Below are positions 1 to 40,903 of a DNA stretch of 41,633 nucleotides, piece after piece. The position numbers were made by a program, and so were the translations under genes. The stretch's first letter is position 1, and every line of letters starts with the position of its first letter. The notes below the pieces were generated by a model. That model saw nothing but the letters and a program-made list of their open reading frames with translations, did not search any database and was not told where the DNA came from. The stretch comes from a virus, in the IMG/VR virus record IMGVR_UViG_3300011115_000294, positions 1 to 41,633 of that record. One strand, given 5' to 3'.

Positions 1-79
1 CCTTGTCTGCCAGAGGCAGAAGGTTTCTTTCAAAGTTTGCCTTTGCATCTGTTGATTCAAACCAATTTGGATATGTCAT
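1..79 (-). CDS. Methyltransferase, 5' fragment created by terminal overlap
   Basis: Read on the minus strand from an ATG at 79-77, this encodes the first 26 residues of the methyltransferase at 40941-41522 and runs off the window edge. It is the same gene seen twice because the window overlaps itself, not a second gene. The ribosome-binding sequence AGGAAGTT lies just upstream, as in the full copy. Confidence 0.85.
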   Translation of the reverse strand, partial: MTYPNWFESTDAKANFERNLLPLADK

Positions 80-100
80 AACTTCCTATTCTCTTTCATC

Positions 101-120
101 GGCTCGCCCTATGGCGAGCC
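101..120 (-). promoter_or_regulatory. Stem-loop in the methyltransferase leader
   Basis: A perfect 8-bp inverted repeat (GGCTCGCC / GGCGAGCC) with a 4-base loop lies about 22 bases upstream of the methyltransferase start, between that gene and the divergent nuclease gene. It repeats at 41544-41563. On the plus strand it is followed by only three T residues, and no plus-strand gene ends before it, so a 5'-leader stem-loop for the minus-strand gene seems likelier than a terminator. Confidence 0.5.
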
Positions 121-192
121 TTTCCCACCCACCACCCCTCTACCCTATACCAATGCTGGTAAAAAAGAAAGGCGTGTCGTTACCAAGTAATC

Positions 193-5909: not shown

Positions 5910-6177
5910 AACTTACAATGAGCAACGTGGTTCACGGATTCGTTCTTATGGTATTACCGTAGAACAATACGAAGAGATGCTTGAGTCACAAGGTGGTGGC
6001 TGTTACATCTGTGGTGCTAGTCCATCAGTTCGTGCGTTGGATATAGATCACGACCATCGTACTGGCAAGGTGCGTGGCTTACTCTGCTCTAATCACAACA
6101 GAGCATTAGGTTTATTGGGTGATGATCCCGATCTGTTACTTGCTGCACACACGTACTTGGTTAGGCAATATGTCTGA
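5890..6177 (+). CDS. Endonuclease VII-like (T4 gp49 type) resolvase
   Basis: 95 residues with the recombination endonuclease VII signature: C38-xx-C41, the catalytic DHDH at 53-56, RTGKVRGLLC with C66 and N-H-N-RALG. Canonical members have CxxCN where this one has C66-S-N-H69-N, so the fourth zinc ligand is probably histidine. The enzyme resolves branched DNA ahead of packaging. It overlaps the preceding gene by 20 bases and the sigma-like gene by 8. Confidence 0.88.
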   Translation: MPRNRNKTYNEQRGSRIRSYGITVEQYEEMLESQGGGCYICGASPSVRALDIDHDHRTGKVRGLLCSNHNRALGLLGDDPDLLLAAHTYLVRQYV

Positions 6178-6808
6178 CCTAACAAGAGACCATCCGATAT
6201 GGCAAGAGATCAATGAGATAACATCTGGTATCGCTTGGCATTTATCTAAACGTTATCATCGATTCGTTGAGCTTGAAGATGTTAGACAAGCAATGAATGA
6301 GTACGCATGGAAGCGTAAGGATAAAGTCAAGGAGTACCTTGACCGCGAAGATCCCATTGAGAAGAAGCAAGGGTATAAAGCGTTTCATACATTCATACGT
6401 AGGGCTGGCGAGCGGTATGCTCGTAAGGAAAAAGCCAAAGCTTTAGGTTATGAACTCGGCGATGAATACTTCTATCGCCTCGAGTTAATTGAAAGCTTGA
6501 TCAAGGTTGCTGGTACTGATGAATCATACTTGGCTAACCAAGTATTCGATCCAGATGTACATGGTGTCAAGGTCAAGCGATTGGCTAATGAGGGTAACAA
6601 CTTAGCAGCAATGATTGCTGATGTAGATGCAGCAATGAAGAAGCTAGACTCAAGAATGCAAGGCATTCTTACGTGTCGGTTTGTTAACGACCAGCCATTA
6701 GCTGAGATAGCACTAGCTTGGGACATCTCACCTCAACGTGTTGAGCAACTGATTGCTAAAGGAATCAAAGAGATAGCGGATAAACTGGGAGGGGCTACGC
6801 CTTACTGA
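6170..6808 (+). CDS. Sigma-70-like RNA polymerase factor
   Basis: 212 residues from ATG 6170 (overlapping the previous stop by 8 bases); an upstream in-frame ATG at 6119 would add an implausible hydrophobic extension. The N-terminal segment (AWHLSKRYHRFVELEDVRQ) resembles sigma region 2. The C-terminal 45 residues (LDSRMQGILTCRF...PLAEIALAWDISPQRVEQL) form a region-4 helix-turn-helix that would bind a -35 element. The middle is charged and has no recognisable domain. A divergent phage sigma factor, possibly cooperating with WhiB to select phage promoters, is the simplest reading; a DNA-binding regulator without sigma activity cannot be excluded. Confidence 0.68.
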   Translation: MSDLTRDHPIWQEINEITSGIAWHLSKRYHRFVELEDVRQAMNEYAWKRKDKVKEYLDREDPIEKKQGYKAFHTFIRRAGERYARKEKAKALGYELGDEYFYRLELIESLIKVAGTDESYLANQVFDPDVHGVKVKRLANEGNNLAAMIADVDAAMKKLDSRMQGILTCRFVNDQPLAEIALAWDISPQRVEQLIAKGIKEIADKLGGATPY

Positions 6809-7735: not shown

Positions 7736-7889
7736 TGTCGGAAAAGAATTCTCTTCGTACTGCATCAGCACTACGACATCTCTGATACATCTCTTGCTCA
7801 CCTTGGTGGTAACCAAAGTGTCGACCAACGTAGTACATACTCATGCCTGCTAGTATCTGCATGAGCAAAGTGAATCCGTTGTAGAACAT
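7722..7889 (-). CDS. Small single-span membrane protein
   Basis: 55 residues. It starts at 7889, where TAATG overlaps the upstream stop by one base, with GGAGC nine bases before. Residues 2-22 (FYNGFTLLMQILAGMSMYYVG) form one likely transmembrane helix, followed by a charged, Arg-rich cytoplasmic tail. It is the last gene of the minus-strand cluster and overlaps the glycosyltransferase 3' end by 14 bases. No family is recognised. Confidence 0.65.
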   Translation of the reverse strand: MFYNGFTLLMQILAGMSMYYVGRHFGYHQGEQEMYQRCRSADAVRREFFSDISRN

Positions 7890-8212
7890 TACTGTGCTCC
7901 TATTCGTTTGAGTAAATCATCTGGATTTTCTAGCCTTGCTATCGCACCCTTGCCACCAGTATCTGGACCTGGTGCTGATAGATGCGGGAAGAACTTCTCT
8001 GCTTGTAAGCGGGTACTGAATTCCCCCCATGCCTGCAAGGGAACCCAGTCCGCCAACTTTGCTACAACAATAAACGATTCTCGTTTAAGCCTAGAGTTAT
8101 CTAGTGCCTCAATGATTTCAATCGCTAATGCTGCAGCATCTTCGGAGTTCTCAGCGTCTGGATCTAGTAGCTTGGCTACTAGACGTATCTCTGTTGGACG
8201 TGGCTTGCCCAT
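7889..8212 (-). CDS. Conserved-type actinophage protein, function unknown
   Basis: 107 residues from the ATG at 8212, which shares one base with the upstream stop (TGATG); a longer frame from 8230 would overlap the neighbour further. The N-terminus (GKPRPTEIRLVAKLLDPDAE) is followed by an Ala/Glu-rich helix. The centre reads F-I-V-V-A-K-L-A-D-W-V-P-L-Q-A-W-G and the C-terminus is basic. No catalytic motif or known domain is seen. Confidence 0.6.
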   Translation of the reverse strand: MGKPRPTEIRLVAKLLDPDAENSEDAAALAIEIIEALDNSRLKRESFIVVAKLADWVPLQAWGEFSTRLQAEKFFPHLSAPGPDTGGKGAIARLENPDDLLKRIGAQ

Positions 8213-8343
8213 CAGTAGTTCTTCATACATTGCACGTAGTTCTGGTGTTCAGCCAGTGCCTCACGTGCTTCTAATTCAGTACGTCGTTCTATCTCTGAGT
8301 TACAATATGCACAGATAAGAACAACACTAACTAGATGTATCAT
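8212..8343 (-). CDS. Small protein with N-terminal hydrophobic segment
   Basis: 43 residues. GGAGGAAGC directly precedes the ATG at 8343 (overlapping the upstream stop as ATGA), which gives one of the strongest ribosome-binding sites in the cluster. The first 13 residues are hydrophobic (IHLVSVVLICAYC), followed by a Glu/Arg-rich helix. It could be a membrane-anchored or secreted miniprotein. No family recognised. Confidence 0.6.
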   Translation of the reverse strand: MIHLVSVVLICAYCNSEIERRTELEAREALAEHQNYVQCMKNY

Positions 8344-8567
8344 GCTTCCTCCTTCACTTGCCATTCCTTGTAGTACGGTTCACATACATCACCGTCGACC
8401 TCGTTGTATTTCATATGAGCACCGAACATGAACACGACTTCGTCGCGGTCATCTCCGATTCCGTATGAGTCATGGTATCCACAGTACCATGACCAGCCAG
8501 CGATGGGGGTAATTTTCATACCCCCAACACGGACACCGAGTGTATCTTTGTTGATTAACTTACCCAT
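8340..8567 (-). CDS. Small hypothetical protein, Trp/Tyr/Gly-rich
   Basis: 75 residues from ATG 8567, preceded by GAGGAGGAATCTA; an upstream in-frame ATG at 8609 lies inside the neighbouring gene and lacks a ribosome site. The sequence is rich in aromatics and glycine (GWSWYCGYHDSYGIGDD) and looks like a compact beta fold. No motif of known function. Confidence 0.6.
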   Translation of the reverse strand: MGKLINKDTLGVRVGGMKITPIAGWSWYCGYHDSYGIGDDRDEVVFMFGAHMKYNEVDGDVCEPYYKEWQVKEEA

Positions 8568-8766
8568 TAGATTCCTCCTCTGGTAGTGGTGCATCCAAGA
8601 TGATGTCAATCATGGCATCATCTGCTTCTTTGTGCAGCTCGGGCTCGATCACGCTTGGGTCATCCATCTTTTGTGCATAGATGTGTAGGTAATCGAGTGC
8701 CTTTTGTATGTACTGTGCCAGCCTTGTCGAGATTTTAGGCTGGATGTATAGGTCTTCCTTATCCAT
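8560..8766 (-). CDS. Small acidic helical protein, unknown function
   Basis: 68 residues, predicted mostly helical (RLAQYIQKALDYLHIYAQKM), with an acidic C-terminus. It begins immediately after the stop of the DUF932-like gene (TAAATG). Its last codons supply the GAGGAGG ribosome site of the following gene, an economical overlap seen throughout this cluster. Confidence 0.6.
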   Translation of the reverse strand: MDKEDLYIQPKISTRLAQYIQKALDYLHIYAQKMDDPSVIEPELHKEADDAMIDIILDAPLPEEESNG

Positions 8767-9747
8767 TTAGATTCCCTTCGTTAGTAGGGCAAGAGCCTTG
8801 CTCTTGATGCGGTCAGCCGAACCGTTGATGACACGCTCGGCTCGAGTTGCTTCTGTCTTGTGGCTGTAGTGGTCAGCGTACTCAACCACTGATTGGAACA
8901 CACCGAATGCTGTGCCATACAGTTCTTCTTGTGTGCCAGTTGCACCTTTGTAGATACCTTTGGCTGCATCTCGTGCAGATATTGCTGAGTTGTACTGTCG
9001 CTTCTGCCCTGTTGAAAGCAGTGCATATGGCGATTGCTCAACGAAGGATGGTAGTGACCACATCTTCTTGAAGATGTTGTCTACCTCTACATCGGTTAGC
9101 TTCTCTTGGAGAAGCTTGTTGCCTACGGTTTCGTAGAACTCGATACCAGTGTATGTGACTGGGATAATCTTTCGGATGTCCTCAATCTTGAACTCGGCAT
9201 TGGTTGTGTGCTTGAGTGTGTAGGTCGCTGACTTAGAGAAGATGCCAGCGATCTGATTAGTGCAACGTAAACGTGTCACACTTGGTGCAATCTGCAGTGC
9301 AGTTGAACCATCATGTGAAGTTCGGGCTACTAGATAAGCCTTGTGCTCATCGTTACCAATCTTCACACCTTTGGGTAGCTCGAGCACCATGTATACCTGT
9401 GCTCCGCCTTTGACTTCACCAGCATATGCATATCGTGCATCTCCTGAATCGACCAGAGCATCTAGACCTGAGAACATCTCAGCATTCTGGAATACTTTGT
9501 ATCGTCCACCGACAGTGCCAAGCACTGACTGTGTGTTGTCCTCATTGGTACGGACAGTAGCGAAAGTGTTAGGCACTTCGAGTTGGCTAACACCTGTGTC
9601 TGATACAGCCAACGCTTGAACGTCGGCTAGTGATACGTGCCAGTCGAGACCAGCCTGTGTGGCTGCGTCTCGTGCTGATGTTGCTGTTACTTCTTCACCG
9701 ATAATGCTGTATGCATTACGGCGGGACTTGATTGTTAGGTTAGTCAT
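8767..9747 (-). CDS. DUF932 / phage-plasmid-like protein (TIGR03299 type)
   Basis: 326 residues. Features typical of DUF932 are present: an N-terminal TS-A-R-D-A region, V-L-G-T-V-G-G-R-Y-K-V-F-Q-N-A-E, a TSHDGSTALQIAPSVTRLRCTNQ core (see T-R-L-x-C-x-N) and a helical C-terminus ending in a Lys/Leu-rich tail. The family is widespread on phages and plasmids without an established activity. CGAAAGGA lies eight bases before the ATG. It is the longest gene of the minus-strand cluster. Confidence 0.82.
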   Translation of the reverse strand: MTNLTIKSRRNAYSIIGEEVTATSARDAATQAGLDWHVSLADVQALAVSDTGVSQLEVPNTFATVRTNEDNTQSVLGTVGGRYKVFQNAEMFSGLDALVDSGDARYAYAGEVKGGAQVYMVLELPKGVKIGNDEHKAYLVARTSHDGSTALQIAPSVTRLRCTNQIAGIFSKSATYTLKHTTNAEFKIEDIRKIIPVTYTGIEFYETVGNKLLQEKLTDVEVDNIFKKMWSLPSFVEQSPYALLSTGQKRQYNSAISARDAAKGIYKGATGTQEELYGTAFGVFQSVVEYADHYSHKTEATRAERVINGSADRIKSKALALLTKGI

Positions 9748-9783
9748 GGTAGTTCCTTTCGTGTTGGGTTGTAGGTGAGGGTA

Positions 9784-10035
9784 TCAGATACGGCTGGTGA
9801 AATCAACAACTGCATCTGAGAGTTGGTCATGATAGTGACCAGTAAAGCAGCGGATTTGGTCGTCCTCTCGACGAGCAAACCACGTTACATATGGGTCAGC
9901 TGTTCGGGTATGTGGCTGTGACTGTGTGTCATTGATCCACAAGCATAGGATTACGTAGCCTGATTCATCCCATGCCTTCTTATAATCTATGACAACGGCT
10001 CCGTTGGCACAGACATCTCCTCTGTTTATGCTCAT
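9784..10035 (-). CDS. Hypothetical protein, 83 residues
   Basis: 83 residues beginning MSINRGDVCANG. Beta-rich with a central WINDTQSQ...YVTWFARRED segment and no known motif. The ATG at 10035 overlaps the upstream TAA by one base, and its CGAAAGGA ribosome motif lies inside the 3' end of the preceding gene, encoding the last residues of that protein. Confidence 0.6.
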   Translation of the reverse strand: MSINRGDVCANGAVVIDYKKAWDESGYVILCLWINDTQSQPHTRTADPYVTWFARREDDQIRCFTGHYHDQLSDAVVDFTSRI

Positions 10036-10499
10036 TACTTTTCCTTTCGTTGGCTGTATACAACGCGGTCAACCTCAAACTCCACGCTATCAGGTGTGGT
10101 GTCGAACGTTGGTTCATACATTTCGAATCGTTCTGCTTCTGTTGATGCGGTCTCCTCATCCTTGGCTCGGACGGTGAAGGTTGCATAGACAATGTGTTGC
10201 ACTTGGATTTCATATTCCTTGTCGAAGACAAGTCGACTGCCGTATACACCGTAGAGTATGTCGTCGAGTTCACCGAGTGATATCTCTGTGTCCTCTTCTG
10301 CATCTTGCTCTTCGATCCAGTCATTCACCTTGGTGAATAGCCTGCTTACCTTACGGCGGTGCTCATCTACGATACTGCGATTGGTTGCGAGGTCAACCGT
10401 TAGTGCGTCAACTCGCTTCTCTAGTGCAACCTTCTGCTCCTCGAGATACACAATCTTCTGCTGGTCTGGCGTTACTACTGGTGCTTCTGTTGTCATGGT
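10035..10499 (-). CDS. Alternative internal-start product of the Cys-rich fusion gene
   Basis: 154-residue form starting at the ATG at 10499, which has CGAAAGGAGC nine bases upstream and a stem-loop (10532-10549) just before that. This is the same leader architecture as the genes at 11777, 13440 and 14013. This strongly suggests independent initiation, giving the coiled-coil/acidic domain without the Cys-rich part. Confidence 0.55.
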   Translation of the reverse strand, partial: TMTTEAPVVTPDQQKIVYLEEQKVALEKRVDALTVDLATNRSIVDEHRRKVSRLFTKVNDWIEEQDAEEDTEISLGELDDILYGVYGSRLVFDKEYEIQVQHIVYATFTVRAKDEETASTEAERFEMYEPTFDTTPDSVEFEVDRVVYSQRKEK

Positions 10500-10736
10500 G
10501 TTGCTCCTTTCGGTTGGTTGGTTATCTATATGCACAGCTAAAGCTGTGCTATCTTGACAGGCACATCCCTCGCTGGTGTATGGCACGTTCTTTCCGCAAT
10601 CATCGCACCACTTCTCATCTTCTTTCGTCTGGCATTTGCAACCACAGCAAGGACAACCACAATCATTATGATTGGACTCACCGCATTCATCGCATGACCA
10701 GTTCGAGCACTTGCATTCTTCACACATGATAGGCAT
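10035..10736 (-). CDS. Cys-rich domain fused in frame to a coiled-coil protein
   Basis: 233 residues in one uninterrupted frame. Residues 1-60 hold 15 cysteines in tightly spaced pairs (CEECKC, CDEC, CGCPCCGCKC, CDDC, CAC), probably binding several metal ions; the remaining 173 residues have none. After residue 80 the protein has a coiled coil (about 95-125: LEEQKVALEKRVDALTV) and an acidic beta-rich C-terminus. An ATG at 10499, preceded by CGAAAGGA and a stem-loop, looks like the authentic start of the second part, so the cluster may make both a fused and a short product. The start at 10736 overlaps the upstream TAA by one base. Confidence 0.6.
   Translation of the reverse strand: MPIMCEECKCSNWSCDECGESNHNDCGCPCCGCKCQTKEDEKWCDDCGKNVPYTSEGCACQDSTALAVHIDNQPTERSNTMTTEAPVVTPDQQKIVYLEEQKVALEKRVDALTVDLATNRSIVDEHRRKVSRLFTKVNDWIEEQDAEEDTEISLGELDDILYGVYGSRLVFDKEYEIQVQHIVYATFTVRAKDEETASTEAERFEMYEPTFDTTPDSVEFEVDRVVYSQRKEK
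10532..10549 (-). promoter_or_regulatory. Leader stem-loop H1 (coding overlap)
   Basis: Perfect 7-8 bp inverted repeat (GCACAGC / GCTGTGC; minus-strand loop TTTA) flanked on the minus strand by GATA on the 5' side. It lies 33 bases upstream of the internal start at 10499 and inside the longer fused frame. Similar hairpins stand before 11777, 13440 and 14013. Confidence 0.6.
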
Positions 10737-11047
10737 TACTCTTCCTCCTCTGTTGTGTCGGTTACTAACTTGTTATCCTTGAGGTACTCAAGGACTAGTT
10801 CATCTATCACTTCATAATCCAGCCCGAAGAAATGGTCACCCATATATACGTGCCAGTTATCCTTGACCATACGGTCGAAGGCTTCTTCACGTGTCGAGGT
10901 GAGCACTAGTTCATACTCATCTGGTCGTGAATAGATAGGCTCAAGACTTTGCCAGATAGCAAGGTCTGTCATGCCCATGCGGTGGTATTGGTTGGTGTAG
11001 TTAGACATGGTTGTCTCTACCTGTGCGATCATGAATGATGCTTCCAT
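10736..11047 (-). CDS. Acidic hypothetical protein, 103 residues
   Basis: Start taken at ATG 11047, preceded by GAGGAAC just after the GP88-like gene stop; an in-frame ATG at 11179 would lie within that gene. The sequence has amphipathic helices (AIWQSLEPIYSRPDEYELVLTSTREEAFDRM), a DNWHVYMGDHFFGLDYEVIDELVLEYL segment and an acidic tail. No known domain. Its stop overlaps the next ATG by one base. Confidence 0.6.
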   Translation of the reverse strand: MEASFMIAQVETTMSNYTNQYHRMGMTDLAIWQSLEPIYSRPDEYELVLTSTREEAFDRMVKDNWHVYMGDHFFGLDYEVIDELVLEYLKDNKLVTDTTEEEE

Positions 11048-11054
11048 TTGTTCC

Positions 11055-11777
11055 TCATTTCTTGGTTGAACTGAATCGGATGTCGGCTTTGCCGTAGACA
11101 CAGAGCCCACAACTAACGCAGGCTGAACCACTCGTTGAGATGAGTGGGATTTGCTTGGTAAGTGCAGGACATTTCGCACCTACCTTGCCAGTGATACGCA
11201 CCATTTCATCCTCCGCATCTGCGAATGTGGTGGATAGGTACGCTAGTTTGGTATCTGTTTCATTGCGAACTTGTTCGGCAATGTGTTTGTTCTCGTCATC
11301 TGTACTGTAGTACAGCGAGAGATTGTCAAGTCCCGATAAGGAATAAGCAGCAGACTTGACACGTGTATAGCACCAGAACTGTACATCCTCGTGCATCATG
11401 ATTACTTTCTGCCATGCATACTCGTAGGTTTGGTTGAAGAAGTCGCCGTCCCAGTGGATGCGGAATAACTTCGGGGCATTCCGTCTCTCACAATCCCTGA
11501 TGAAATCAGTAATCATGTCATCAAGTAAGTCAACCATTTGGTTGACGTCTGCGTCCTTCAATAGTTGCCAGTTGTGAACGAGAACTTCTCGCACTCCTTT
11601 GTATACACGCTCGAGCTTGCCTGCATAACATACTTTCTCACAGATGCTGGTTGCATCGGGACAAGAGTATGCCTTGCCTGCTGGTAAGCCAAAGGTGTTA
11701 GCGATTGCAGATGTCTTGCCACTTGGCGAGACTAGGTTGGTAACCTTGCGGTCATTGCTTCTGATTAGCGATAGCAT
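11055..11777 (-). CDS. GP88-like actinophage protein
   Basis: 240 residues. It has the pattern of the mycobacteriophage 'gene product 88' family: LVSPSGKTS..NTFGLPAGKAYSCPDAT near residues 16-43 with C39, C46 and C50 (CEKVCYAG), a FRIHWDGDFF core, and a C-terminal CVSCGLC cluster followed by DIRF. The cysteine groups at both ends suggest metal or Fe-S binding. Function is unknown despite wide occurrence in actinophages. The leader contains stem-loop H2 and CGAAAGGAGAAAG before the ATG. Confidence 0.68.
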   Translation of the reverse strand: MLSLIRSNDRKVTNLVSPSGKTSAIANTFGLPAGKAYSCPDATSICEKVCYAGKLERVYKGVREVLVHNWQLLKDADVNQMVDLLDDMITDFIRDCERRNAPKLFRIHWDGDFFNQTYEYAWQKVIMMHEDVQFWCYTRVKSAAYSLSGLDNLSLYYSTDDENKHIAEQVRNETDTKLAYLSTTFADAEDEMVRITGKVGAKCPALTKQIPLISTSGSACVSCGLCVYGKADIRFSSTKK

Positions 11778-11810
11778 CTTTCTCCTTTCGGTTTGGTCGG
11801 CTTATTCAAG

Positions 11811-11829
11811 AGCATAGATTCTCTATGCT
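11811..11829 (-). promoter_or_regulatory. Leader stem-loop H2
   Basis: Perfect 8-bp stem (AGCATAGA / TCTATGCT) with a 3-base loop reading GAA on the minus strand, preceded there by TATA. It lies in the gap between the genes ending at 11846 and starting at 11777, with no U-tract. It shares loop and position, but not stem sequence, with H3 and H4. Confidence 0.65.
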
Positions 11830-11845
11830 ATAAAGAATGCACGTG

Positions 11846-12034
11846 CTACCCGCAGCACATACCCTCGTTAGTATCTGCACAACACTCAGCGCAGAATGGT
11901 TCGTTGTCCTTCATGGAATTGCGACAGCCATACTCATCCATTGTGTTGGTGCAAGGATGTCCTTCGTATCCAAAGCACACGAGATCCGCGAGCTCGTGTA
12001 TGTTCATGTCCATGATGTGCTTAGTCGTTGTCAT
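11846..12034 (-). CDS. Cysteine-rich miniprotein
   Basis: 62 residues from ATG 12034 (an ATG two codons earlier is possible), with seven cysteines: C20, C28, C37 and C48-x-x-C51-C52, then C60-C61 at the end, in a GHPCTNTMDEYGC...CAECC context. Probably a small zinc-binding protein. It overlaps the upstream gene by 14 bases. No family recognised. Confidence 0.6.
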   Translation of the reverse strand: MTTTKHIMDMNIHELADLVCFGYEGHPCTNTMDEYGCRNSMKDNEPFCAECCADTNEGMCCG

Positions 12035-12293
12035 AATCACACCATGGTTCTAAGTGATGACCTTCGACTATTGTGTAGGCGGGAGCCGTAGGATAGCCCC
12101 GCCATGAGACACCCTTTGGCAGTTGGATTTGTTTATGAGTGAGCCCTTCTGATACCGCATAGATTGCCTCGATGCATGGTTCCACCATGCTAAGAGGGAC
12201 AGGCGGATAGTGATTACCTGTTAGGTGATACCCGATTGACTGGCGAATGTCAATGACATTCTCTGCTAGGTCGTGCGCTGTGTTGCTTCCCAT
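12021..12293 (-). CDS. Conserved-type actinophage protein (NHYPPVP family)
   Basis: 90 residues with an early Y-H-L-T-G-N-H-Y-P-P-V-P-L-S segment, a central helix, LPKGVSWRG and a C-terminal TIVEGHHLEPW. I recall this arrangement from small proteins of many actinobacterial phages; no function is known. The ATG overlaps the upstream TAA by one base. Confidence 0.65.
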   Translation of the reverse strand: MGSNTAHDLAENVIDIRQSIGYHLTGNHYPPVPLSMVEPCIEAIYAVSEGLTHKQIQLPKGVSWRGYPTAPAYTIVEGHHLEPWCDYDND

Positions 12294-12469
12294 TATTCTG
12301 CTCCTTCTGCTAAGTCTTGAAGTATGTCTTCAAGTAGTGCGTCGATAAAGTTGTCAACTCTTCCGTTGATTTCCTCTACTGCCTCAGCAAATGCTGATTC
12401 AGATACATTTCCCTCACGATTATCTTTATAGATAGCCTTGAGTTCCTCTATGTCTATGTGCTTGGTCAT
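12293..12469 (-). CDS. Small acidic helical protein
   Basis: 58 residues, almost entirely helical and acidic (IDIEELKAIYKDN...EAVEEINGRVDNFIDALLEDILQDL). The start at 12469 overlaps the upstream TGA (TGATG), and the stop overlaps the next start (TAATG). AAGGAG of the next gene lies in its last codons. Could be a protein-binding inhibitor-type miniprotein; this is only suggested by composition. Confidence 0.6.
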   Translation of the reverse strand: MTKHIDIEELKAIYKDNREGNVSESAFAEAVEEINGRVDNFIDALLEDILQDLAEGAE

Positions 12470-12663
12470 CAGATTACCTCCTTGATTTCTACGGCTTTGC
12501 CGTATCGCCAGATGAACTTCTCGAACTTGTCATCATCGGGTGATGTGTCTTCCTCTTGCATTGCCTTGCTTATGTGTCCTTCACTGTCGTCAATGACGAA
12601 GAGGACAGAGTCCTCGACGTACTCCCACCAATCGCCGTTCTCGTTTGCTATGTATACGGTCAT
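12469..12663 (-). CDS. Small hypothetical protein, acidic
   Basis: 64 residues, with an aromatic N-terminus (YIANENGDWWEYVEDSVLF), a Ser/Asp-rich middle and KFEKFIWRYGKAVEIKEV at the end. It overlaps the upstream stop by four bases. No motif recognised. Confidence 0.6.
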   Translation of the reverse strand: MTVYIANENGDWWEYVEDSVLFVIDDSEGHISKAMQEEDTSPDDDKFEKFIWRYGKAVEIKEVI

Positions 12664-13019
12664 ACGTGGTACTCCTTCATCTCTTGTTGGTATTCAATGA
12701 ATGCACCGAACGAATGTTCATGCCCTTCATCATTGACTGTCTGTTTCGTAAAGTCCACCACTACAGTGGTGTCCCCTAAGTCCTCGCCGTCAACAGATGT
12801 GAACAAGCCGAAGCCTGTCTCGCTGTTCCATTGGTCGCCGATTAGTTGTGATACAACTATGCGGGCTGCATAGTTCTGGTCTGTCCATCGTGGTGTTGCT
12901 TTGCTTAAAGCAAAGGCTAGTTCTTCACGCCACATAGTCTCGCCCCAGTGTGAGTAGAGTGTGACGTGTGCTTGTTCGTTTGGATATACCTTCAGTACGA
13001 AATTGATACGTGCTCCCAT
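12660..13019 (-). CDS. Conserved-type actinophage protein (SHWG family)
   Basis: 119 residues: GARINFVLKVY..., VTLYSHWGETMWREELAFAL, RWTDQNYAARIVVSQLIG and ETGFGLFTS. This combination is familiar from hypothetical proteins of actinophages and some plasmids. It is probably a small alpha/beta domain with no visible catalytic residues. The start lies directly after the preceding stop. Confidence 0.65.
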   Translation of the reverse strand: MGARINFVLKVYPNEQAHVTLYSHWGETMWREELAFALSKATPRWTDQNYAARIVVSQLIGDQWNSETGFGLFTSVDGEDLGDTTVVVDFTKQTVNDEGHEHSFGAFIEYQQEMKEYHV

Positions 13020-13208
13020 TTAGATTTCTCCTATCTGTTGTAGTAATTCAATGGCTTTTGCCATTGCTTCTTGCCATGAATACCCCTCGGCTGATGCCAG
13101 CGTGGTATTCCAGTCGTCGAGTTTCTCGAACTCGACTGTGTACAGTGTGCCTCGAGGATTCCAAGGCATGTCATCTTCTTGGTGGTTCAGTTTTACTTTG
13201 TAATCCAT
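13020..13208 (-). CDS. Small hypothetical protein, 62 residues
   Basis: Start at ATG 13208 with GAGGAATGAA upstream; a longer in-frame extension to 13325 would lie inside the neighbouring gene. Reads MDYKVKLNHQED...GTLYTVEFEKLDDW then an Ala-rich amphipathic helix at the C-terminus, resembling a small beta-beta-alpha fold. Function unknown. Confidence 0.6.
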   Translation of the reverse strand: MDYKVKLNHQEDDMPWNPRGTLYTVEFEKLDDWNTTLASAEGYSWQEAMAKAIELLQQIGEI

Positions 13209-13209
13209 T

Positions 13210-13440
13210 TCATTCCTCCTCATCACAGTCACTGCCGAACATCTTTTGCCAGCAGGTATCACATGTACCAGAGATAAGCAACTCTCTATCTCCGATAGAT
13301 AAATCAGGGAAGATGTCTTGCACAAACCTACGCTCAGAGCGAGGCATGTAGAGTTCAGTCAACTGCTCAACTGTTGCGGGAACTTGTGTTGTCTGACCGC
13401 ATAAACGGCAGTCAACGTCAAACGTAATCATTGTGCTCAT
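13210..13440 (-). CDS. Small zinc-ribbon protein
   Basis: 76 residues from ATG 13440, preceded by CGAAAGGAGC and stem-loop H3. CRLC near the N-terminus and CDTC near residue 61 form a likely four-cysteine zinc site, separated by a helix with VEQLTELYMPRSERRFVQDIF. The layout resembles zinc-ribbon miniproteins encoded by many actinophages. Function unknown. Confidence 0.65.
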   Translation of the reverse strand: MSTMITFDVDCRLCGQTTQVPATVEQLTELYMPRSERRFVQDIFPDLSIGDRELLISGTCDTCWQKMFGSDCDEEE

Positions 13441-13497
13441 TGGTGCTCCTTTCGATTGGTGTAGAGGGGACAGCGATTTGCCATCCCCCCTTTCTAT

Positions 13498-13514
13498 ACA
13501 CATCTTCGATGTGT
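13498..13514 (-). promoter_or_regulatory. Leader stem-loop H3
   Basis: Perfect 7-bp stem (ACACATC / GATGTGT) with a GAA loop on the minus strand, preceded by GATA. It begins right after the stop of the 37-residue gene and is followed by a G-rich segment that can pair with CCCC further down the 57-base leader, before CGAAAGGA and the ATG at 13440. Confidence 0.65.
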
Positions 13515-13517
13515 TAT

Positions 13518-13631
13518 CTATGAATGACGTGCGAGCCATTCGGTTACGGCGCGACGAGCGACGAACAGACCAAGCGTAAAGCCACTAGTAAATAGGGCTA
13601 TTGCTATTGCAATATAGTCTCCGTAGTACAT
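13518..13631 (-). CDS. 37-residue single-span membrane protein
   Basis: Starts at ATG 13631 with AAGGAGATAACTA upstream and a TAATG overlap. Residues 5-24 (DYIAIAIALFTSGFTLGLFV) form a transmembrane helix, followed by an Arg-containing amphipathic tail. Too short for family assignment. The ribosome site and tight packing between neighbours support its being a real gene. Confidence 0.65.
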   Translation of the reverse strand: MYYGDYIAIAIALFTSGFTLGLFVARRAVTEWLARHS

Positions 13632-13768
13632 TAGTTATCTCCTTCCTTTGAGCGATTACGTATGTCAGCGCAGGGGTAGCAAGTCTTCTCGACTTCGACT
13701 CCAAGTACGAAGGCATCTATGCCTGAGTAGATGATGTCAATTGCTCCGTCACAGTATTGGCATCGCAT
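13631..13768 (-). CDS. 45-residue zinc-binding miniprotein
   Basis: Contains C3-x-x-C6 and C30-x-x-C33, a complete zinc-knuckle pair, separated by a short beta segment (AIDIIYSGIDAFVLGVEV). It overlaps neighbours on both sides by one base (TAATG), and its last codons hold the AAGGAGATAA ribosome site of the next gene. Confidence 0.65.
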   Translation of the reverse strand: MRCQYCDGAIDIIYSGIDAFVLGVEVEKTCYPCADIRNRSKEGDN

Positions 13769-14013
13769 TATGCGCGACCTCCCTTCAGGGTAAGGTAAGC
13801 GTTTGGCTCAACCTTTTGGATTTCATCCAGAACTGTGGTAAAGTTCGGGTATGCCTTGAAGGCTGAGAGGATTGCTTCAATCTTCTTCGAAGATTTAGCG
13901 GTGTTAGTAGTGATGCGTACCTTTGCGAAGATACGCTTATCATCTGGCTTCGACACATGAACAACGCCGTTCTTCACAACGCCGACTAGTGCCTTAGTTT
14001 CAACTGTTCTCAT
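13768..14013 (-). CDS. First gene of the minus cluster, 81-residue hypothetical protein
   Basis: Start at ATG 14013 with CGAAAGGAACACC directly upstream; an in-frame ATG at 14043 lacks a ribosome site. The sequence is basic, with beta-rich N-terminal strands (ALVGVVKNGVVHVSKPDDKRIFAKVRI) and a helical C-terminal half. It is the first gene after the minus-strand promoter and stem-loop H4, so likely among the earliest and most expressed products. Function unknown. Confidence 0.65.
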   Translation of the reverse strand: MRTVETKALVGVVKNGVVHVSKPDDKRIFAKVRITTNTAKSSKKIEAILSAFKAYPNFTTVLDEIQKVEPNAYLTLKGGRA

Positions 14014-14065
14014 GGTGTTCCTTTCGGTAAAGTGCCGAGCCAATTTGATTCGACCCCTTTATCAA

Positions 14066-14084
14066 AACAAATCTTCGATTTGTT
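14066..14084 (-). promoter_or_regulatory. Leader stem-loop H4
   Basis: Perfect 8-bp stem (AACAAATC / GATTTGTT) with GAA loop on the minus strand, about 20 bases downstream of the predicted transcription start and 53 bases upstream of the ATG at 14013. It is the promoter-proximal member of the H1-H4 family. Confidence 0.65.
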
Positions 14085-14109
14085 ATCAAGAAAAGACAGG
14101 TGTGCATGG

Positions 14110-14137
14110 ATCATACGTGCGAGCTGTTAGCAGTCAA
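14110..14137 (-). promoter_or_regulatory. Sigma-70-type promoter for the minus-strand cluster
   Basis: On the minus strand, TTGACT (14137-14132), a 16-base spacer and TATGAT (14115-14110). Transcription should begin near 14103 and run leftward through the small-gene cluster to the terminator at 7680. Both boxes are close to consensus. Confidence 0.8.
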
Positions 14138-14149
14138 TACGTATCGCCC

Positions 14150-14228
14150 GCCATGCTTATGCGTTATGACGCATGGCGCGACACGGCATGCATGACATGA
14201 CGTAGAGCGCATGACATGACACATGACA
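14150..14228. repeat. Inverted and direct repeats between divergent promoters
   Basis: Nested inverted repeats (GCCATGC at 14150-14156 with GCATGGC at 14171-14177; ATGCGT at 14159-14164 with ACGCAT at 14169-14174) lie next to two direct copies of ATGACATGAC (14192-14201 and 14211-14220, 19 bases apart) and a partial third copy at 14223. They are candidate operator or replication-initiator sites between the two divergent promoters. No coding potential is evident. Confidence 0.55.
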
Positions 14229-14270
14229 CACACAGGGTGAGCCAACACACCGAGGATTTACGCTTGAGAT

Positions 14271-14299
14271 TTGACATTGGGCTGGCTGTGTGAGATAAT
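14271..14299 (+). promoter_or_regulatory. Consensus sigma-70-type promoter, rightward
   Basis: TTGACA at 14271-14276, 17-base spacer and GATAAT at 14294-14299. Transcription should start near 14306 and read the small gene at 14347. The match to the housekeeping consensus suggests immediate recognition by host polymerase. Confidence 0.85.
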
Positions 14300-14346
14300 G
14301 TTTGTCGTTGGGAGGTGGTCTCTCAGCATTAGACGAAAGGCAAGAC

Positions 14347-14613
14347 ATGAACACAGCATGGACACATGATGACCTACTCACAGACCTTCAAGCGGAGGTG
14401 CTGGAGGTACGCAAGGAGTACGGAGTACCAAGCCTGAATCACATCCCTGATTTCGAATTGGTCTCTCTCGCATATGCACAGTTGGGCGACCTTGTCCACA
14501 TAGGCAAGGGGCGCGTTGGTATCGTGTATGACATCGCGGAGGTACGTAATGCAAGAGAGTTGCGTATCGTGAGCGATAAGTTCCGCGTAATCATGAAGAG
14601 AGTTTCCCTATAA
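14347..14613 (+). CDS. Small hypothetical protein behind a strong promoter
   Basis: 88 residues from ATG 14347, preceded by CGAAAGGCAAGAC; an upstream in-frame ATG at 14302 would lie at or before the transcription start. It has an acidic N-terminal helix (DDLLTDLQAEVLEVRKEYG) and a C-terminal beta/alpha half with basic patches. It is a single-gene transcript with its own consensus promoter and a terminator 15 bases after the stop. That suggests an immediate-early product, perhaps a host takeover or regulatory protein. No family recognised. Confidence 0.65.
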   Translation: MNTAWTHDDLLTDLQAEVLEVRKEYGVPSLNHIPDFELVSLAYAQLGDLVHIGKGRVGIVYDIAEVRNARELRIVSDKFRVIMKRVSL

Positions 14614-20612: not shown

Positions 20613-20815
20613 AAGTATTCAAGAAGTTCGAGGAGAATCTCGAGTATCTTGGGTTTGAGTTGGCTCCAGTAGCATGGGATTTAGCTCGTTTTCCTTTTGA
20701 GTCTGATAGTGATCGCATTGATTTACTTAATGAATTAACTACAGCTCCAGAAGGGGGAATGACTAATGTCGCAGATGCAACCACAGCCAACACCAACTCC
20801 CAACTGGTGGGATAA
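20609..20815 (+). CDS. Small hypothetical protein in the head region
   Basis: 68 residues, with an N-terminal helix/loop (KVFKKFEENLEYLGFELAPVAWDLARFPFES) and an Asn/Thr-rich end. It overlaps the giant virion gene by 50 bases, and its coding region supplies that gene's AAGGGGGA ribosome site. Function unknown. Confidence 0.6.
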   Translation: MKVFKKFEENLEYLGFELAPVAWDLARFPFESDSDRIDLLNELTTAPEGGMTNVADATTANTNSQLVG

Positions 20816-23800
20816 GTACTATGCTGAAACACCAGCAACCGCTCCTGGACCAACGTATTCACCTGTAGATTCTTTTAAGAAACAACAGTTTGATAATACT
20901 AAAGTCGGTGGAATTGAAAAAGCTATTGTTCCTAAGATCGCTTCTGGAATTGAAAAGGCAAAGAATAGTCCATTTGGTTTTATTGTAAATCCAGCCATGA
21001 AGGTTATGGAGACAGTAGGCAAATACGTAGTTCAACCTATTACACAGGGTGTCTCTACTGCTCTTCTTGTTCCACAAGCTCTTGGTCAAGGCAAGGGCGT
21101 ATCTAGTTTTAGATACGCATCCCAGCAAGCCAAGAAGATCTCAATGGGTCAGGCTCTTGCCACATCTGTAGGCGGAGTTGTTGGATCTGTATTACCAGAT
21201 GCAATTACTCCTACATTCATGGACAGCAACTTTAACGTCTTTGATGACAAACAACGAGACAATGCATTCAGAGATGAATGGCTTGGAATTGTTGCATCAG
21301 GTGGAACAGATTTAACTCTCGCATTGCTTGGTACTAAAGGTGCTGGAGCAATAACTCGTGCAGGTGTAAAGACTGCAGTTGGATCAAAAAAGATTCTTAC
21401 AACTGCAGATATGAATACATTCCGCGCTAAAGTTGAAGACACTGTTGCTTGGGCTGCTGCCAAAACTGGCGAAGCACCTACATCTGGTCTTGGTGTTCTT
21501 ATTGATGACGCAGTTAAAGAGACAAATCTAACTCGTCTTGCTGCGAATCCTTTGATTTCAGAAACTGCAAACCCATATCGCACAGCAACAATCGTCTCTC
21601 GTCTTGATAATCATCGAGATGTTGGAGATTACCTGCTTGCCGAACGTGGTGATACTGCAGCATTCATGCGTTTAATGCAAAGCAAGCCAGTACTTGCTGA
21701 CCATATTGACAATTATGGCATTAACCGATTTGAACCAATTTCAGATTTTTCTAAAATTGGATTAGATGCAATCAGTCCTAAGTTGACAACTCGCTATCAG
21801 GCTATTATTGATGCCAAGCGAGCATCTGATCCTAAATTTTCTGACGCACTTGATGACTTTATGTCCAAGGCAACTAGTGGCGTACTTGAAAGTTATCAAC
21901 CAGGTAAGTATGGCGTACTAGAAAAGCTAAACCTCGGTAAGCAAAAGCTTGCTTTGCAAGCTAAGTATGGTGATATCAAACTATTTGGTCGAGACGGTGG
22001 CGAAGGCTGGCGTTCAACTGTATATCAGACAGATGTTTATGATCGTGCCGTACGTGCTATTGCATGGGTGGGTTCAGGTCGACCACAAGGTCACATCAAT
22101 GTTTCTAACCCACGTAGGTTTGAAGCAGCCAATGATTTACTATCAGACCTTAACCGTTTGCAAATGCTACGCGGTTCAGAAGGTGCAAAGTTTAAGCGCG
22201 ATATGGTTGAGAAGTTCCTTGCAGCACAGGATGATACTCAACGAGCAATGGCTCTTGCGCAAGTAGAACAACAAGTCATGATTAGACTTGCTAATAATTA
22301 CGGTGTTCGTGGTATCGATGATATCAAGACTAATAAAGATGCAGTAGACCAAATTACTAAATGGCATGCTGGCGTTAGTGAGCGTCGTCAAACATTAACT
22401 CAATATGCGACCAAGCATGGATTTATACCAGATGAAGATGGAAACCTTAACGTAACCAACTTCTTTGCTGTATCAAATGAAGCTCAGACTGTACCAATGC
22501 TTGATTTCCGTAAGTTAGAAATTGAAGTTATTGTAAATACTAAGCGTTCACTTGGTGCAAGAGCACCAATTACTAAAGGTCAAGAGCTTGGAGCATTTGC
22601 CTCTAAGGTTGGAATGTCTGTAGGTCAAGTTCTTGACACAGCCAATATGGTATTTAATAACTTAAACCTACTTCGCTTTGCATACATCCCAAAGAACTCA
22701 ATGGTTGATCCATTTGCTCGTGGAAGTATGGCACTTGAATCAATGGAACTTGTAAAAAACGGAATGCCTGGTGTACAGAACATTGTTCACAATACAAGCC
22801 TACGTGCAGAACAAGCAAAGCGTTGGATTCCTGGAACCAATAGCGCAGCATCACGACGTCAAGAGAAAGCCGTCCTCAAAGAGATGGATATTCTTGCTGG
22901 TGATCTTAAAATTGCTGTCGAACCATGGGAAGTAGCACAAAAGAATTTTGATGCAGCCGAAATGGCATGGCAAGCAGCACGTACAGCGCAAGCAAAAGCT
23001 GAAGCACTAGCCAAAAAAGCTACCAAAGCGACGCAAGCACAAGCAGATGCTGCAAAACATGCAGCAGATTACGAACTTTGGAAAGCGCAAGACGCTTTCT
23101 ATAAGGCAACAGATGATTTAGACCGAACCGCACAACAGGTTAATGGTTTATCTGTACTTATTGAAAAGAAGCGTGGTCTTATTTCAGATGAGGCTAAAGC
23201 ACAGGGTGCTTTGCGCAATCGTAAACTGCTAGGTCAAGAAGCAGAAGTCATTACTGTCAATGGTAAAGAATATGCAATTGCAGGTCTTGCAGATCCCAAC
23301 ATTCGTGGTGCTAAAGCCTACATGTCTGAGATCGATTCAACACAAAACTTTTATAGTACATCTATGCAGGCTGAATATAGCCGTCGTCTACGTGCAGAAG
23401 GCTCACGATTTGTCACAATCAAGCGTAACGAGGGTAAGCCTTATTGGAATGCGTTAGCACATATTGCTAATCGTCAGATTCGTAACGAACTTGAGATGCC
23501 TTTAGGCATGATGATGCGTGGTGAATCAGACGGACAGATTCTTAAATGGCTTTATACAGGTGATGCTGGTAAAGAATACCGACGTCGTATGTCATCACGT
23601 GCTGGTCATCAAATGACTCAAGATGAATTTGCATCATGGGTTAGCACAACAAGCGACAAGCTTCGTAAGATGTATCCAAGTGAAGAACTACGTAAACTTA
23701 TTTTAGAACGAGATGTCTCAATCAAGGAAACAGAAATTCTTCTTCGCAATAGACCAGATCTACTTGAGTCTATCGAAGGTCCAAACATTAATCTTAATGA

Positions 23801-25721
23801 TTTGAACTGGGCTGAAAAGAGATTTGCTAATTTAGCTGGAGTTACTGATGCAGCATGGCGCGTTCTTGCGTTATCTGAAAACAGAATGGTTCGTAATCCA
23901 CTCTTCTTGAATTACACAAGAGATGAAATGCGAACACTTATCAATGCAGCACAACGTGCTGGCATTGACCCATCAGATGCAGTGGTTAATAACCAGATGC
24001 GTCAGGTTGCCTATCGTAATGCACTAGCACGTGTGGAACAAACACTGTATTCATCACGTCGCCTCACCAATGGTATGTACGCTGCTCGTTTTGCAATGTC
24101 ATTCCCTCTAGCGTTCTTTAATAGCCAGGTAGTTGCCATGAAATTGATGGCTAAGAACCCAATGAATGCATATTGGTATAACAGTATTGCTAATGCTTTT
24201 GATAACTTTGAAGCATACGAAGACCAAGATGGAAACACATATGCAAAGATGTCAGATGTTCCACCAGGGACTCAGGTAAACGTTAAGTATCCGCTTCCAT
24301 TGGGAGACAAGCTCCCTCAGTGGGCAAAGGATGCGCTTAAGCCATATACAGACTCACGTGGTGGTGGGCTTAAATGGAATCCAAAGCAAATGGAATTCAT
24401 GATTGCAGATCCAAGCGTGTCTTGGTTTGGAACCGTTGGAATTTCACAGCTTGTTAAAGATGGATTTACAGCACCTTTTGGTTTATGGACAATTCATGGT
24501 GAAGACATTGCAAAGAACATACGTTCCACATTTGGTGATGACTTTTATGAAAACAGTATTCTTTATGGTGGTTACCCACAAGAAGGTGGCAACCTAGTAA
24601 GCACAGCAGTTAATACAATTGCTCCAGGCTATTTACGTTCAGCACTGGATAAGATTGGCATACTGCGTAGTGATCGATTCGTCGATGAAGTGTTTACTAA
24701 CTATCGCGTTCTTTATTCAGAATGGGATCGCAATGGACGTACAGGCGAACCTCCTAGCATGGCGGTTGCTGCTAAAGCAGCGGGCAATATGTCTTTCATT
24801 CGTTCTGTGGTTCAATTCTTTGCTCCTATCTCAACAACTTTTGATCCAGTAACTCGTGCTGCTACACAGTATTACAGCGACCTACTTACCCAGTTTGGTG
24901 GCGACTACGACCTAGCACAGAAGAAGATGGAAGAAGAATGGGGTATTGACTCCATTGCTTTGATTGGTTCGAACCAAAAGAATATTGCTGGTGTAGCTGC
25001 TAACTACTCAGATATTAAAATGATTCGTAATAACCCAGCCCTTCTTGAGAAGATTGGTCGTTGGGATACTAAATACGCATCAATGTTATCTGCTGGATAC
25101 GGTGAGTTAACAGATCAATATTCAACTGAGATCGCTGCAATCTATAAGAGATTAAATTTCCCTGGTGGATACAACTCTCCTCTTACTCAAAAGAAGAGTG
25201 CAGAAGAACTAAGAGTTGATATTGAATCACGCCGTGGGTGGGCTGAATATCAGAAAGCCACAGAGTGGCGTGATTCAGTTATGGCTCAATATGGAGTTAC
25301 TTCGTCATATCAAGTTAGATACCAATCACTTGGTATTAAAGCAGAGTATGACCGAATGGTTAAAGCAATCCAAACAGATTTTCCAGGTTGGGCTGATAAT
25401 CGTTCAGCAAGCCAAAGAGATTTCTGGGGCGTAACAGTTCCAGCAATCCAGGAGATTGCTAATGATCCTAAGTGGAGACAATATGCCGATGGTAAAGGTG
25501 ACAAGTGGACAGAGATTGCCTACTGGTTAACCCAAGCTAACGCATTCAAACAACAGTATGCCCAGGCAATGAGCAGTGATGCTCGTAAAGCAGATCTTAA
25601 AGCACAGTTTTCGCAATTTCATTATAACTTTATGCAAGTTGCAAGCGATGACTTTTCAACATTTGCAGCAAGGTGGTTAGAGAACATGCCCGAACTAAGT
25701 ACAGAATTGGTGGCTTCATAA
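20766..25721 (+). CDS. Giant (1651-residue) virion protein, probable ejection protein
   Basis: Largest gene of the genome, about 12% of it. The N-terminus is Pro-rich (PQPTPTPNWWDKYY). Residues 70-180 hold several Ala/Gly/Val-rich, potentially membrane-active stretches. A strongly helical, Ala/Lys-rich coiled coil spans about 730-800 (EMAWQAARTAQAKAEALAKKATKA). Further hydrophobic segments occur near 1100 (ARFAMSFPLAFFNSQVVAMKL). No enzyme motif is apparent. Size, helical content and place between portal and coat match the internal or ejection proteins of podoviruses rather than a tape measure, which would follow tail-tube genes. Start is ATG 20766, preceded by AAGGGGGA. Confidence 0.6.
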   Translation: MSQMQPQPTPTPNWWDKYYAETPATAPGPTYSPVDSFKKQQFDNTKVGGIEKAIVPKIASGIEKAKNSPFGFIVNPAMKVMETVGKYVVQPITQGVSTALLVPQALGQGKGVSSFRYASQQAKKISMGQALATSVGGVVGSVLPDAITPTFMDSNFNVFDDKQRDNAFRDEWLGIVASGGTDLTLALLGTKGAGAITRAGVKTAVGSKKILTTADMNTFRAKVEDTVAWAAAKTGEAPTSGLGVLIDDAVKETNLTRLAANPLISETANPYRTATIVSRLDNHRDVGDYLLAERGDTAAFMRLMQSKPVLADHIDNYGINRFEPISDFSKIGLDAISPKLTTRYQAIIDAKRASDPKFSDALDDFMSKATSGVLESYQPGKYGVLEKLNLGKQKLALQAKYGDIKLFGRDGGEGWRSTVYQTDVYDRAVRAIAWVGSGRPQGHINVSNPRRFEAANDLLSDLNRLQMLRGSEGAKFKRDMVEKFLAAQDDTQRAMALAQVEQQVMIRLANNYGVRGIDDIKTNKDAVDQITKWHAGVSERRQTLTQYATKHGFIPDEDGNLNVTNFFAVSNEAQTVPMLDFRKLEIEVIVNTKRSLGARAPITKGQELGAFASKVGMSVGQVLDTANMVFNNLNLLRFAYIPKNSMVDPFARGSMALESMELVKNGMPGVQNIVHNTSLRAEQAKRWIPGTNSAASRRQEKAVLKEMDILAGDLKIAVEPWEVAQKNFDAAEMAWQAARTAQAKAEALAKKATKATQAQADAAKHAADYELWKAQDAFYKATDDLDRTAQQVNGLSVLIEKKRGLISDEAKAQGALRNRKLLGQEAEVITVNGKEYAIAGLADPNIRGAKAYMSEIDSTQNFYSTSMQAEYSRRLRAEGSRFVTIKRNEGKPYWNALAHIANRQIRNELEMPLGMMMRGESDGQILKWLYTGDAGKEYRRRMSSRAGHQMTQDEFASWVSTTSDKLRKMYPSEELRKLILERDVSIKETEILLRNRPDLLESIEGPNINLNDLNWAEKRFANLAGVTDAAWRVLALSENRMVRNPLFLNYTRDEMRTLINAAQRAGIDPSDAVVNNQMRQVAYRNALARVEQTLYSSRRLTNGMYAARFAMSFPLAFFNSQVVAMKLMAKNPMNAYWYNSIANAFDNFEAYEDQDGNTYAKMSDVPPGTQVNVKYPLPLGDKLPQWAKDALKPYTDSRGGGLKWNPKQMEFMIADPSVSWFGTVGISQLVKDGFTAPFGLWTIHGEDIAKNIRSTFGDDFYENSILYGGYPQEGGNLVSTAVNTIAPGYLRSALDKIGILRSDRFVDEVFTNYRVLYSEWDRNGRTGEPPSMAVAAKAAGNMSFIRSVVQFFAPISTTFDPVTRAATQYYSDLLTQFGGDYDLAQKKMEEEWGIDSIALIGSNQKNIAGVAANYSDIKMIRNNPALLEKIGRWDTKYASMLSAGYGELTDQYSTEIAAIYKRLNFPGGYNSPLTQKKSAEELRVDIESRRGWAEYQKATEWRDSVMAQYGVTSSYQVRYQSLGIKAEYDRMVKAIQTDFPGWADNRSASQRDFWGVTVPAIQEIANDPKWRQYADGKGDKWTEIAYWLTQANAFKQQYAQAMSSDARKADLKAQFSQFHYNFMQVASDDFSTFAARWLENMPELSTELVAS

Positions 25722-40893: not shown

Positions 40894-40903
40894 GGCTGAA
40901 GGA

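What the first reader, a model, noticed from the sequence alone, without database searches (positions are those of the whole stretch)
10532..14084. Family of covarying stem-loops with GAA loops in leaders of the minus-strand cluster
Four perfect 7-8 bp hairpins (10532-10549, 11811-11829, 13498-13514, 14066-14084) stand 33-58 bases upstream of starts that all have CGAAAGGA. Three share the loop GAA, and all share a (G/T)ATA(A/G)CA-like left side, but stem bases differ with full compensation. Lack of U-tracts argues against terminators. They may be mRNA-stabilising 5' caps, RNase processing sites or protein-binding elements splitting a long transcript into units.
Basis: seen in the sequence. Interest (0 to 1): 0.72.

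Follow-up and report, generated by a model that had tools for sequence, protein, structure and literature searches.

The report
Covarying leader hairpins in phage operon
Freshwater viruses of (probably) actinobacteria carry about four copies per genome of one small, strictly base-paired hairpin, each just upstream of a gene in a single leftward operon, most likely marking where the messenger RNA is split, protected or regulated.

Summary
All four hairpins are at the stated coordinates, 33-57 nt upstream of starts with an extended Shine-Dalgarno (CGAAAGGA). Perfect hairpins alone are not remarkable here, because this genome has about 6x more than expected. These four are different: they belong to one family (consensus GAT-ARCANANC-loop-GNTNTGYT-AU-rich tract-GG).

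I found 252 matches in 80 loci of related freshwater phages. Near-complete genomes carry 3-6 copies, nearly always 4, on one strand of one operon. Among 82 distinct sequences four stem pairs covary, with no G-U pair and no mismatch except an optional outermost pair. Loops left free in a scan proved to be almost only RWA triloops or UUUA. At one site the hairpin spans 17-20 nt between constant flanks, which argues against a double-stranded promoter or operator.

Rfam, bacterial genomes and 51 of 52 distant GP88-carrying loci lack it. Portal-related Streptomyces phages have analogous leader hairpins with UNCG loops.

Best reading: a new, factor-recognised mRNA boundary element (processing, stability or regulation). 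Function is untested. The absence of G-U also fits DNA template switching, or less likely a DNA-level hairpin. Verdict: new variant of a known kind (phage intercistronic leader hairpins).

The parts
14066..14084 (-). element A: 8-bp hairpin, loop GAA, leader of first gene of the leftward operon
   Evidence: hairpin present at this leader in every relative that covers it
14085..14098 (-). 5' flank of A, TGTCTTTTCTTGAT
   Evidence: conserved in relatives
14057..14065 (-). AU-rich, C-poor tract 3' of hairpin A
14019..14026 (-). extended Shine-Dalgarno CGAAAGGA of gene 1
13768..14013 (-). gene 1, 81 aa, basic, conserved directly downstream of element A; function unknown
13498..13514 (-). element B: 7-bp hairpin, loop GAA
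13489..13497 (-). AU-rich tract ATAGAAAGG 3' of hairpin B
13466..13488 (-). second hairpin of leader B (GGGGATGGC-AAATC-GCTGTCCCC), covarying and using G-U pairs in every variant
13447..13454 (-). Shine-Dalgarno CGAAAGGA after B
13210..13440 (-). gene downstream of B (76 aa)
11811..11829 (-). element C: 8-bp hairpin, loop GAA
11801..11810 (-). AU-rich tract CTTGAATAAG 3' of hairpin C
11783..11790 (-). Shine-Dalgarno CGAAAGGA after C
11055..11777 (-). GP88 family gene (PF17338) downstream of C
10532..10549 (-). element D: 7-bp hairpin, loop TTTA
10522..10531 (-). AU-rich tract ATATAGATAA 3' of hairpin D
10505..10512 (-). Shine-Dalgarno CGAAAGGA after D
10035..10496 (-). gene downstream of D (153 aa, unknown)

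Best explanation
The four hairpins are copies of one sequence-defined element that works in the messenger RNA of the leftward operon. The operon is probably read into one long transcript (inferred). Each element sits in the first leader or just after the stop codon of one cistron, 32-60 nt before the next start (shown). A phage or host factor recognises the short perfect stem, its RWA or UUUA loop and the AU-rich flank. It then defines a boundary there, most likely by cutting in, or protecting up to, the AU-rich tract 3' of the hairpin. This would leave the upstream mRNA with a 3' hairpin and the downstream mRNA with a short leader carrying a strong ribosome-binding site (inferred). Family, position, fold and sequence constraint are shown here; the factor, the cut and the effect on expression are inferred.
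For: Recurrence at orthologous leaders in relatives with fully compensated stems; 252 model matches and 3-6 (nearly always 4) per genome on one strand. 82 distinct rows with 97 double-change cells against 28 +/- 3.6 in shuffles and at most 16 when slid. Loops left free in a scan come out as RWA or TTTA. The hairpin precedes the start by 32-60 nt in nearly all cases and usually lies within about 25 nt of the upstream stop; the 3' tract is AT-rich with almost no C, then G. At site B identical flanks enclose hairpins of 17, 18, 19 and 20 nt, so the fold matters and not dsDNA spacing. All window hairpins fold as single strands at -5 to -12 kcal/mol as RNA, so a set stability is not what is conserved. 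Portal-related Streptomyces phages have analogous leader hairpins with UNCG loops in their leftward cluster. Precedent: T4 gene 32 mRNA is cut by RNase E 71 nt upstream of the start (PMC3014915), and CUUCGG leader hairpins stabilise phage mRNAs (PMC8948821).
Against: No transcript ends are known. There is no G-U pair among 82 distinct rows, which is unusual for an RNA helix, while hairpin B2 in the same leader uses G-U in every variant. RNA folding of whole leaders A and B gives alternative pairings for the arms (paired probability about 0.7). No candidate nuclease or RNA-binding protein was identified; the gene 1 fold matched nothing.
Confidence: 0.5

Rival explanations
1. Protein-binding regulatory RNA site: a phage protein binds the hairpin to control translation or to modify RNA polymerase (like nut boxB), without cutting the RNA.
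For: Sequence constraint beyond stability, with invariant pairs, loop rule and flank. Stem stability varies from -5 to -12 kcal/mol. Conserved short basic gene 1 right after element A.
Against: No boxA-like motif is common to the sites. The Shine-Dalgarno lies well outside the hairpin and is mostly unpaired in leaders B, C and D. Gene 1 has no fold match to RNA-binding proteins.
Confidence: 0.25
2. DNA-level hairpin: the element acts as an extruded hairpin in the non-template DNA strand, for example as a promoter or polymerase signal like the hairpin promoters of phage N4.
For: No G-U (G-T in DNA) pairs in 82 rows. The closing pair and loop C-RWA-G resemble the C-GNA-G loop needed for N4 promoter hairpin extrusion (PMC4496689). 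No other conserved promoter upstream of element A.
Against: In N4 the stable loop is on the template strand; here it is on the coding strand. The structural 1651-aa protein shows no polymerase domain (not excluded). The absence of G-U is also expected from template switching (PMC8794818).
Confidence: 0.1
3. Double-stranded promoter or operator with an inverted repeat, like the ESAS elements of cluster K mycobacteriophages.
For: Inverted repeats upstream of starts in one gene cluster. ESAS contain SigA-like hexamers around an inverted repeat (PMC11373665). The phage encodes a sigma-like factor at 6119-6808.
Against: The interval between the flanks varies by 3 nt at the same site. No sigma-70 pattern at the hairpins. 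ESAS repeats were judged not to form compensated hairpins (PMC3203893). The loop is strand-specific.
Confidence: 0.08
4. Hairpin-dependent pause site or weak intrinsic terminator.
For: Hairpin followed by 8-9 nt of weak A/U hybrid and then G.
Against: No U run; none was called as a terminator. The genes downstream need read-through.
Confidence: 0.05
5. Functionless by-product of template-switch mutation that makes perfect palindromes.
For: Excess of Watson-Crick-only hairpins throughout the genome.
Against: Strict consensus, loop rule, fixed number, strand and positions; never broken in any copy found.
Confidence: 0.02

Closest known systems
T4 intercistronic CUUCGG hairpins and the gene 32 leader hairpin
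   Same: Hairpin in a phage intercistronic leader some tens of nt before a start; several copies per genome; cited as stabilising or processing-associated (PMC8948821, PMC3014915)
   Different: T4 hairpins use the UUCG tetraloop with free stem sequence; here loops are RWA or UUUA, part of the stem and both flanks are fixed, and copies are confined to one operon
SAS/ESAS elements of cluster K mycobacteriophages
   Same: Repeated inverted repeat upstream of a conserved ribosome-binding sequence before a subset of non-structural genes of an actinobacteriophage (PMC3203893)
   Different: ESAS repeats are imperfect 17-bp arms with spacers of mostly 4-13 bp, show little support for mRNA hairpins, and overlap putative SigA promoters (PMC11373665); here stems covary perfectly and no promoter hexamers are present
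Leader hairpins of Beephvirinae Streptomyces phages (WRightOn, Kumquat, Abafar, Dennebes)
   Same: Perfect hairpins in most leaders of the leftward cluster of portal-related phages, in front of a conserved Shine-Dalgarno
   Different: GC-rich stems, UNCG or other loops, unrelated sequence; WRightOn has no match to the model
N4 virion RNA polymerase promoter hairpins
   Same: Short stem, three-base loop, C-G closing pair, purine first and A last in the loop (PMC4496689)
   Different: Those act as template-strand DNA; here the loop strand is the coding strand and no such polymerase was recognised

Membership tests
T4-type CUUCGG intercistronic hairpins | C(UUCG)G tetraloop | tested here: not met
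   Loops are GAA, AAA, GTA, ATA or TTTA
T4-type CUUCGG intercistronic hairpins | Intercistronic or leader position upstream of a start | tested here: met
   Hairpin end 32-60 nt before the start in nearly all copies
T4-type CUUCGG intercistronic hairpins | Stabilises or is processed in mRNA | not testable with these tools
   No transcript data
Cluster K SAS/ESAS | SAS sequence GGGATAGGAGCCC at starts | tested here: not met
   Starts carry CGAAAGGA instead
Cluster K SAS/ESAS | Imperfect 17-bp inverted repeats without compensation | tested here: not met
   7-8 bp perfect compensated stems
Intrinsic terminator | GC-rich stem followed by a U run | tested here: not met
   None called at the four sites; tract is mixed A/U
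N4 vRNAP hairpin promoter | Stable hairpin loop on the template strand of the downstream genes | tested here: not met
   C-RWA-G loop lies on the coding strand at all sites
N4 vRNAP hairpin promoter | Virion-packaged single-subunit RNA polymerase in the genome | tested here: inconclusive
   The 1651-aa structural protein matches only an unknown PHROG and no Pfam or PDB sequence
RNase III processing site (T7 type) | Long, about two-turn, double-stranded stem | tested here: not met
   Stems are 7-8 bp
lambda-type nut site | boxA plus boxB with GNRA-like pentaloop | tested here: not met
   Loops are 3-4 nt; no common boxA-like motif in the aligned flanks
Known Rfam RNA family | Match at gathering threshold | tested here: not met
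   No match in the window

The most novel reading that the evidence does not exclude
The element is recognised as a folded DNA strand rather than as RNA: a coding-strand mini-hairpin with C-RWA-G or C-TTTA-G loops that acts as a phage transcription signal at the head of each operon segment, a coding-strand counterpart of the N4 hairpin promoter. The absence of G-U pairs would then reflect DNA pairing.
Probability: 0.1. Interest if true: 0.85.

Novelty: new variant of a known kind. Interest (0 to 1): 0.52.

Why it matters
It is a compact, sequence-defined cis-element shared by a large group of uncultivated freshwater phages and absent from Rfam. Its strict Watson-Crick covariation makes a clean test case for whether compensated helices arise by selection through G-U intermediates or by replication template switching. 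If it is a processing or binding site, it would be a portable RNA boundary element and a handle on how these phages time early genes.

Tried and rejected
Sigma-70 promoter upstream of A (14137-14110): present in the window and a few relatives but not conserved. Loop stability from nearest-neighbour parameters, RNA against DNA: the energy tables did not separate triloops, so uninformative. N4-like polymerase in the 1651-aa protein: no Pfam or PDB sequence match; not folded, too long for the tool. Gene 1 as an RNA-binding protein: confident AlphaFold model (pLDDT 86) but no meaningful fold match in PDB or BFVD. Presence in bacterial genomes: two pattern hits, in Helicobacter and Anaeroplasma, about what chance gives. 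Copying of elements between sites within a genome: identical stem and loop in only 19 of 279 within-genome pairs, slightly above permutation (mean 10.4, 6/1000). Literature searches on freshwater actinobacterial phages and on phage leader hairpins gave nothing directly on this element.
Full report
Observation. The window is a freshwater phage contig from IMG/VR with about 190 bp of near-identical terminal repeat, so it is essentially a whole genome. The leftward cluster from 14.0 to 7.9 kb includes GP88 and DUF932 genes; the remaining genes (replication, a sigma-like factor, structural genes) mostly run rightward. CGAAAGGA is an extended Shine-Dalgarno; it also precedes genes without hairpins and is widespread in distant GP88 phages that lack the hairpins.

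Chance. Perfect hairpins with stems of 7 bp or more are about 6 times commoner in this genome than in dinucleotide shuffles (66 against 10.8), 22 times in the leftward operon by window counts, while hairpins with one G-T pair are only about 2 times in excess. T7 shows a deficit. So a perfect hairpin in itself proves little here. What matters is the family.

The family. A GP88 search gave 28 close relatives. In all of them that cover the sites, the same leaders carry perfect hairpins with different, fully compensated stems, although site D is missing from some genomes. A degenerate pattern found the element in many further phage contigs. When the loop and two stem pairs were left free, 74 of 113 contexts paired at both free pairs, and the loops of those were AAA 46, GTA 14, ATA 7, GAA 2 and five singletons; with 4-nt loops, 18 of 22 were TTTA, whereas unpaired chance hits had mixed loops. 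A covariance model from 62 copies found the four sites in the window at E of 3e-8 or better, the next hit being the opposite strand of site D at 0.036 (the four sites were in the training set). It found 3-6 sites in each of 15 near-complete genomes, nearly always 4, the main hits all on one strand within a few kb, and 252 matches in 80 loci. It found none in 51 of 52 distant GP88 loci and none in two portal relatives. Rfam has no match, and bacterial genomes have only chance hits.

Anatomy. The consensus is GAT-A-R-C-A-N-A-N-C, loop RWA or UUUA, complementary arm, 8-9 nt almost free of C and rich in A/U, then G. Among 82 distinct aligned rows, four pairs change on both sides (97 cells against 28 +/- 3.6 in shuffles), with no G-U pair and no mismatch except the optional outermost A-U. 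The 80 lowest-scoring matches that I inspected were all perfect. The second hairpin of leader B also covaries but uses G-U in every variant, a useful internal contrast. The hairpin ends 32-60 nt before the start in nearly all copies and usually lies close to the upstream stop; in some phages copy B lies inside the end of the upstream reading frame. At site B, constant flanks enclose hairpins of 17 to 20 nt, which a bipartite promoter or dimer operator could hardly tolerate. No sigma-70 promoter is conserved upstream of A.

Reading. Strand-specific loops, leader position, variable length between fixed flanks and a sequence constraint that goes beyond stability (-5 to -12 kcal/mol) fit an mRNA element recognised by a factor. 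Portal relatives among Streptomyces phages (38% identity; Beephvirinae) have perfect hairpins in most leaders of their leftward cluster, several with UNCG loops, before a conserved Shine-Dalgarno, so the design recurs although the sequence does not. T4 offers the precedent: gene 32 mRNA is cut by RNase E 71 nt upstream of the start (PMC3014915), and CUUCGG leader hairpins are reported to stabilise phage mRNAs (PMC8948821). I therefore favour a boundary element for processing or protection (0.5), then a regulatory protein-binding site (0.25).

The unusual part is the absence of G-U. It could come from replication template switching, which is proposed to create and maintain perfect RNA stems (PMC8794818) and fits the genome-wide excess of Watson-Crick-only hairpins. 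It could also mean that the active form is DNA: N4 promoter hairpins need a C-GNA-G loop (PMC4496689), similar to C-RWA-G here, but on the template strand. I give that about 0.1. A reporter with G-U substituted stems would separate RNA from DNA.

Comparison. ESAS/SAS of cluster K mycobacteriophages are the nearest described arrangement in actinobacteriophages, but their repeats are imperfect, were judged not to support mRNA hairpins, and overlap promoter hexamers (PMC3203893; PMC11373665). The element fails their defining features, and those of terminators, RNase III sites and nut sites. It is a new sequence family of a known kind of thing.

Gene 1. The 81-aa basic protein encoded right after element A is conserved across the close relatives and several more distant ones. 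Its model is confident (pLDDT 86) but has no informative structural match, so no link to the element can be claimed.

Host. No host was shown directly. That the host is an actinobacterium is inferred from the portal relatives being Streptomyces phages and from the freshwater relatives; it is not tested.

Noticed in passing
window 1-41633, strongest 7880-14600: Genome-wide excess of perfect Watson-Crick mini-hairpins (6x, 22x in the leftward operon), mostly inside coding sequence, with hardly any excess of G-T containing ones: a template-switching signature.
   Followed up: partly
window 12843-12875: Overlapping perfect palindromes sharing arms (AACTATGC..GCATAGTT and TAGTTGT..ACAACTA), as serial template-switch events would leave.
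   Followed up: no
window 13466-13488: Second hairpin in leader B with constant AAATC loop, G-U pairs and covariation; in some relatives followed by a short T run.
   Followed up: partly
window 14013-14056: Leader A also seems to hold a second stem-loop just upstream of the Shine-Dalgarno, with changed sequence but similar shape in relatives.
   Followed up: no
window 11839-11862: Terminator-like hairpin overlapping the stop codon just upstream of element C in the window.
   Followed up: no
window 1-190 and 41444-41633: Direct terminal repeat of about 190 bp (93% identical, 126 bp exact), so the contig is essentially a whole genome.
   Followed up: yes
window 20766-25721: 1651-aa protein of unknown function (phrog_10618) among structural genes, similar in size and position to gp10 of Streptomyces phage WRightOn.
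   Followed up: partly
window 31041-31066 and 40903-40932: Perfect 11-bp and 13-bp hairpins between genes, possible terminators.
   Followed up: no
L308 36-43.5 kb, L310-L312: Portal-related Streptomyces phages carry perfect leader hairpins, several with UNCG loops, in most gaps of their leftward cluster, before AACAAGGGAGAG-like Shine-Dalgarno sequences.
   Followed up: partly
L295 (82,688-bp contig): Contig of about twice the genome size carries eight elements in two groups of four: two phage genomes joined or a concatemer-like assembly.
   Followed up: no
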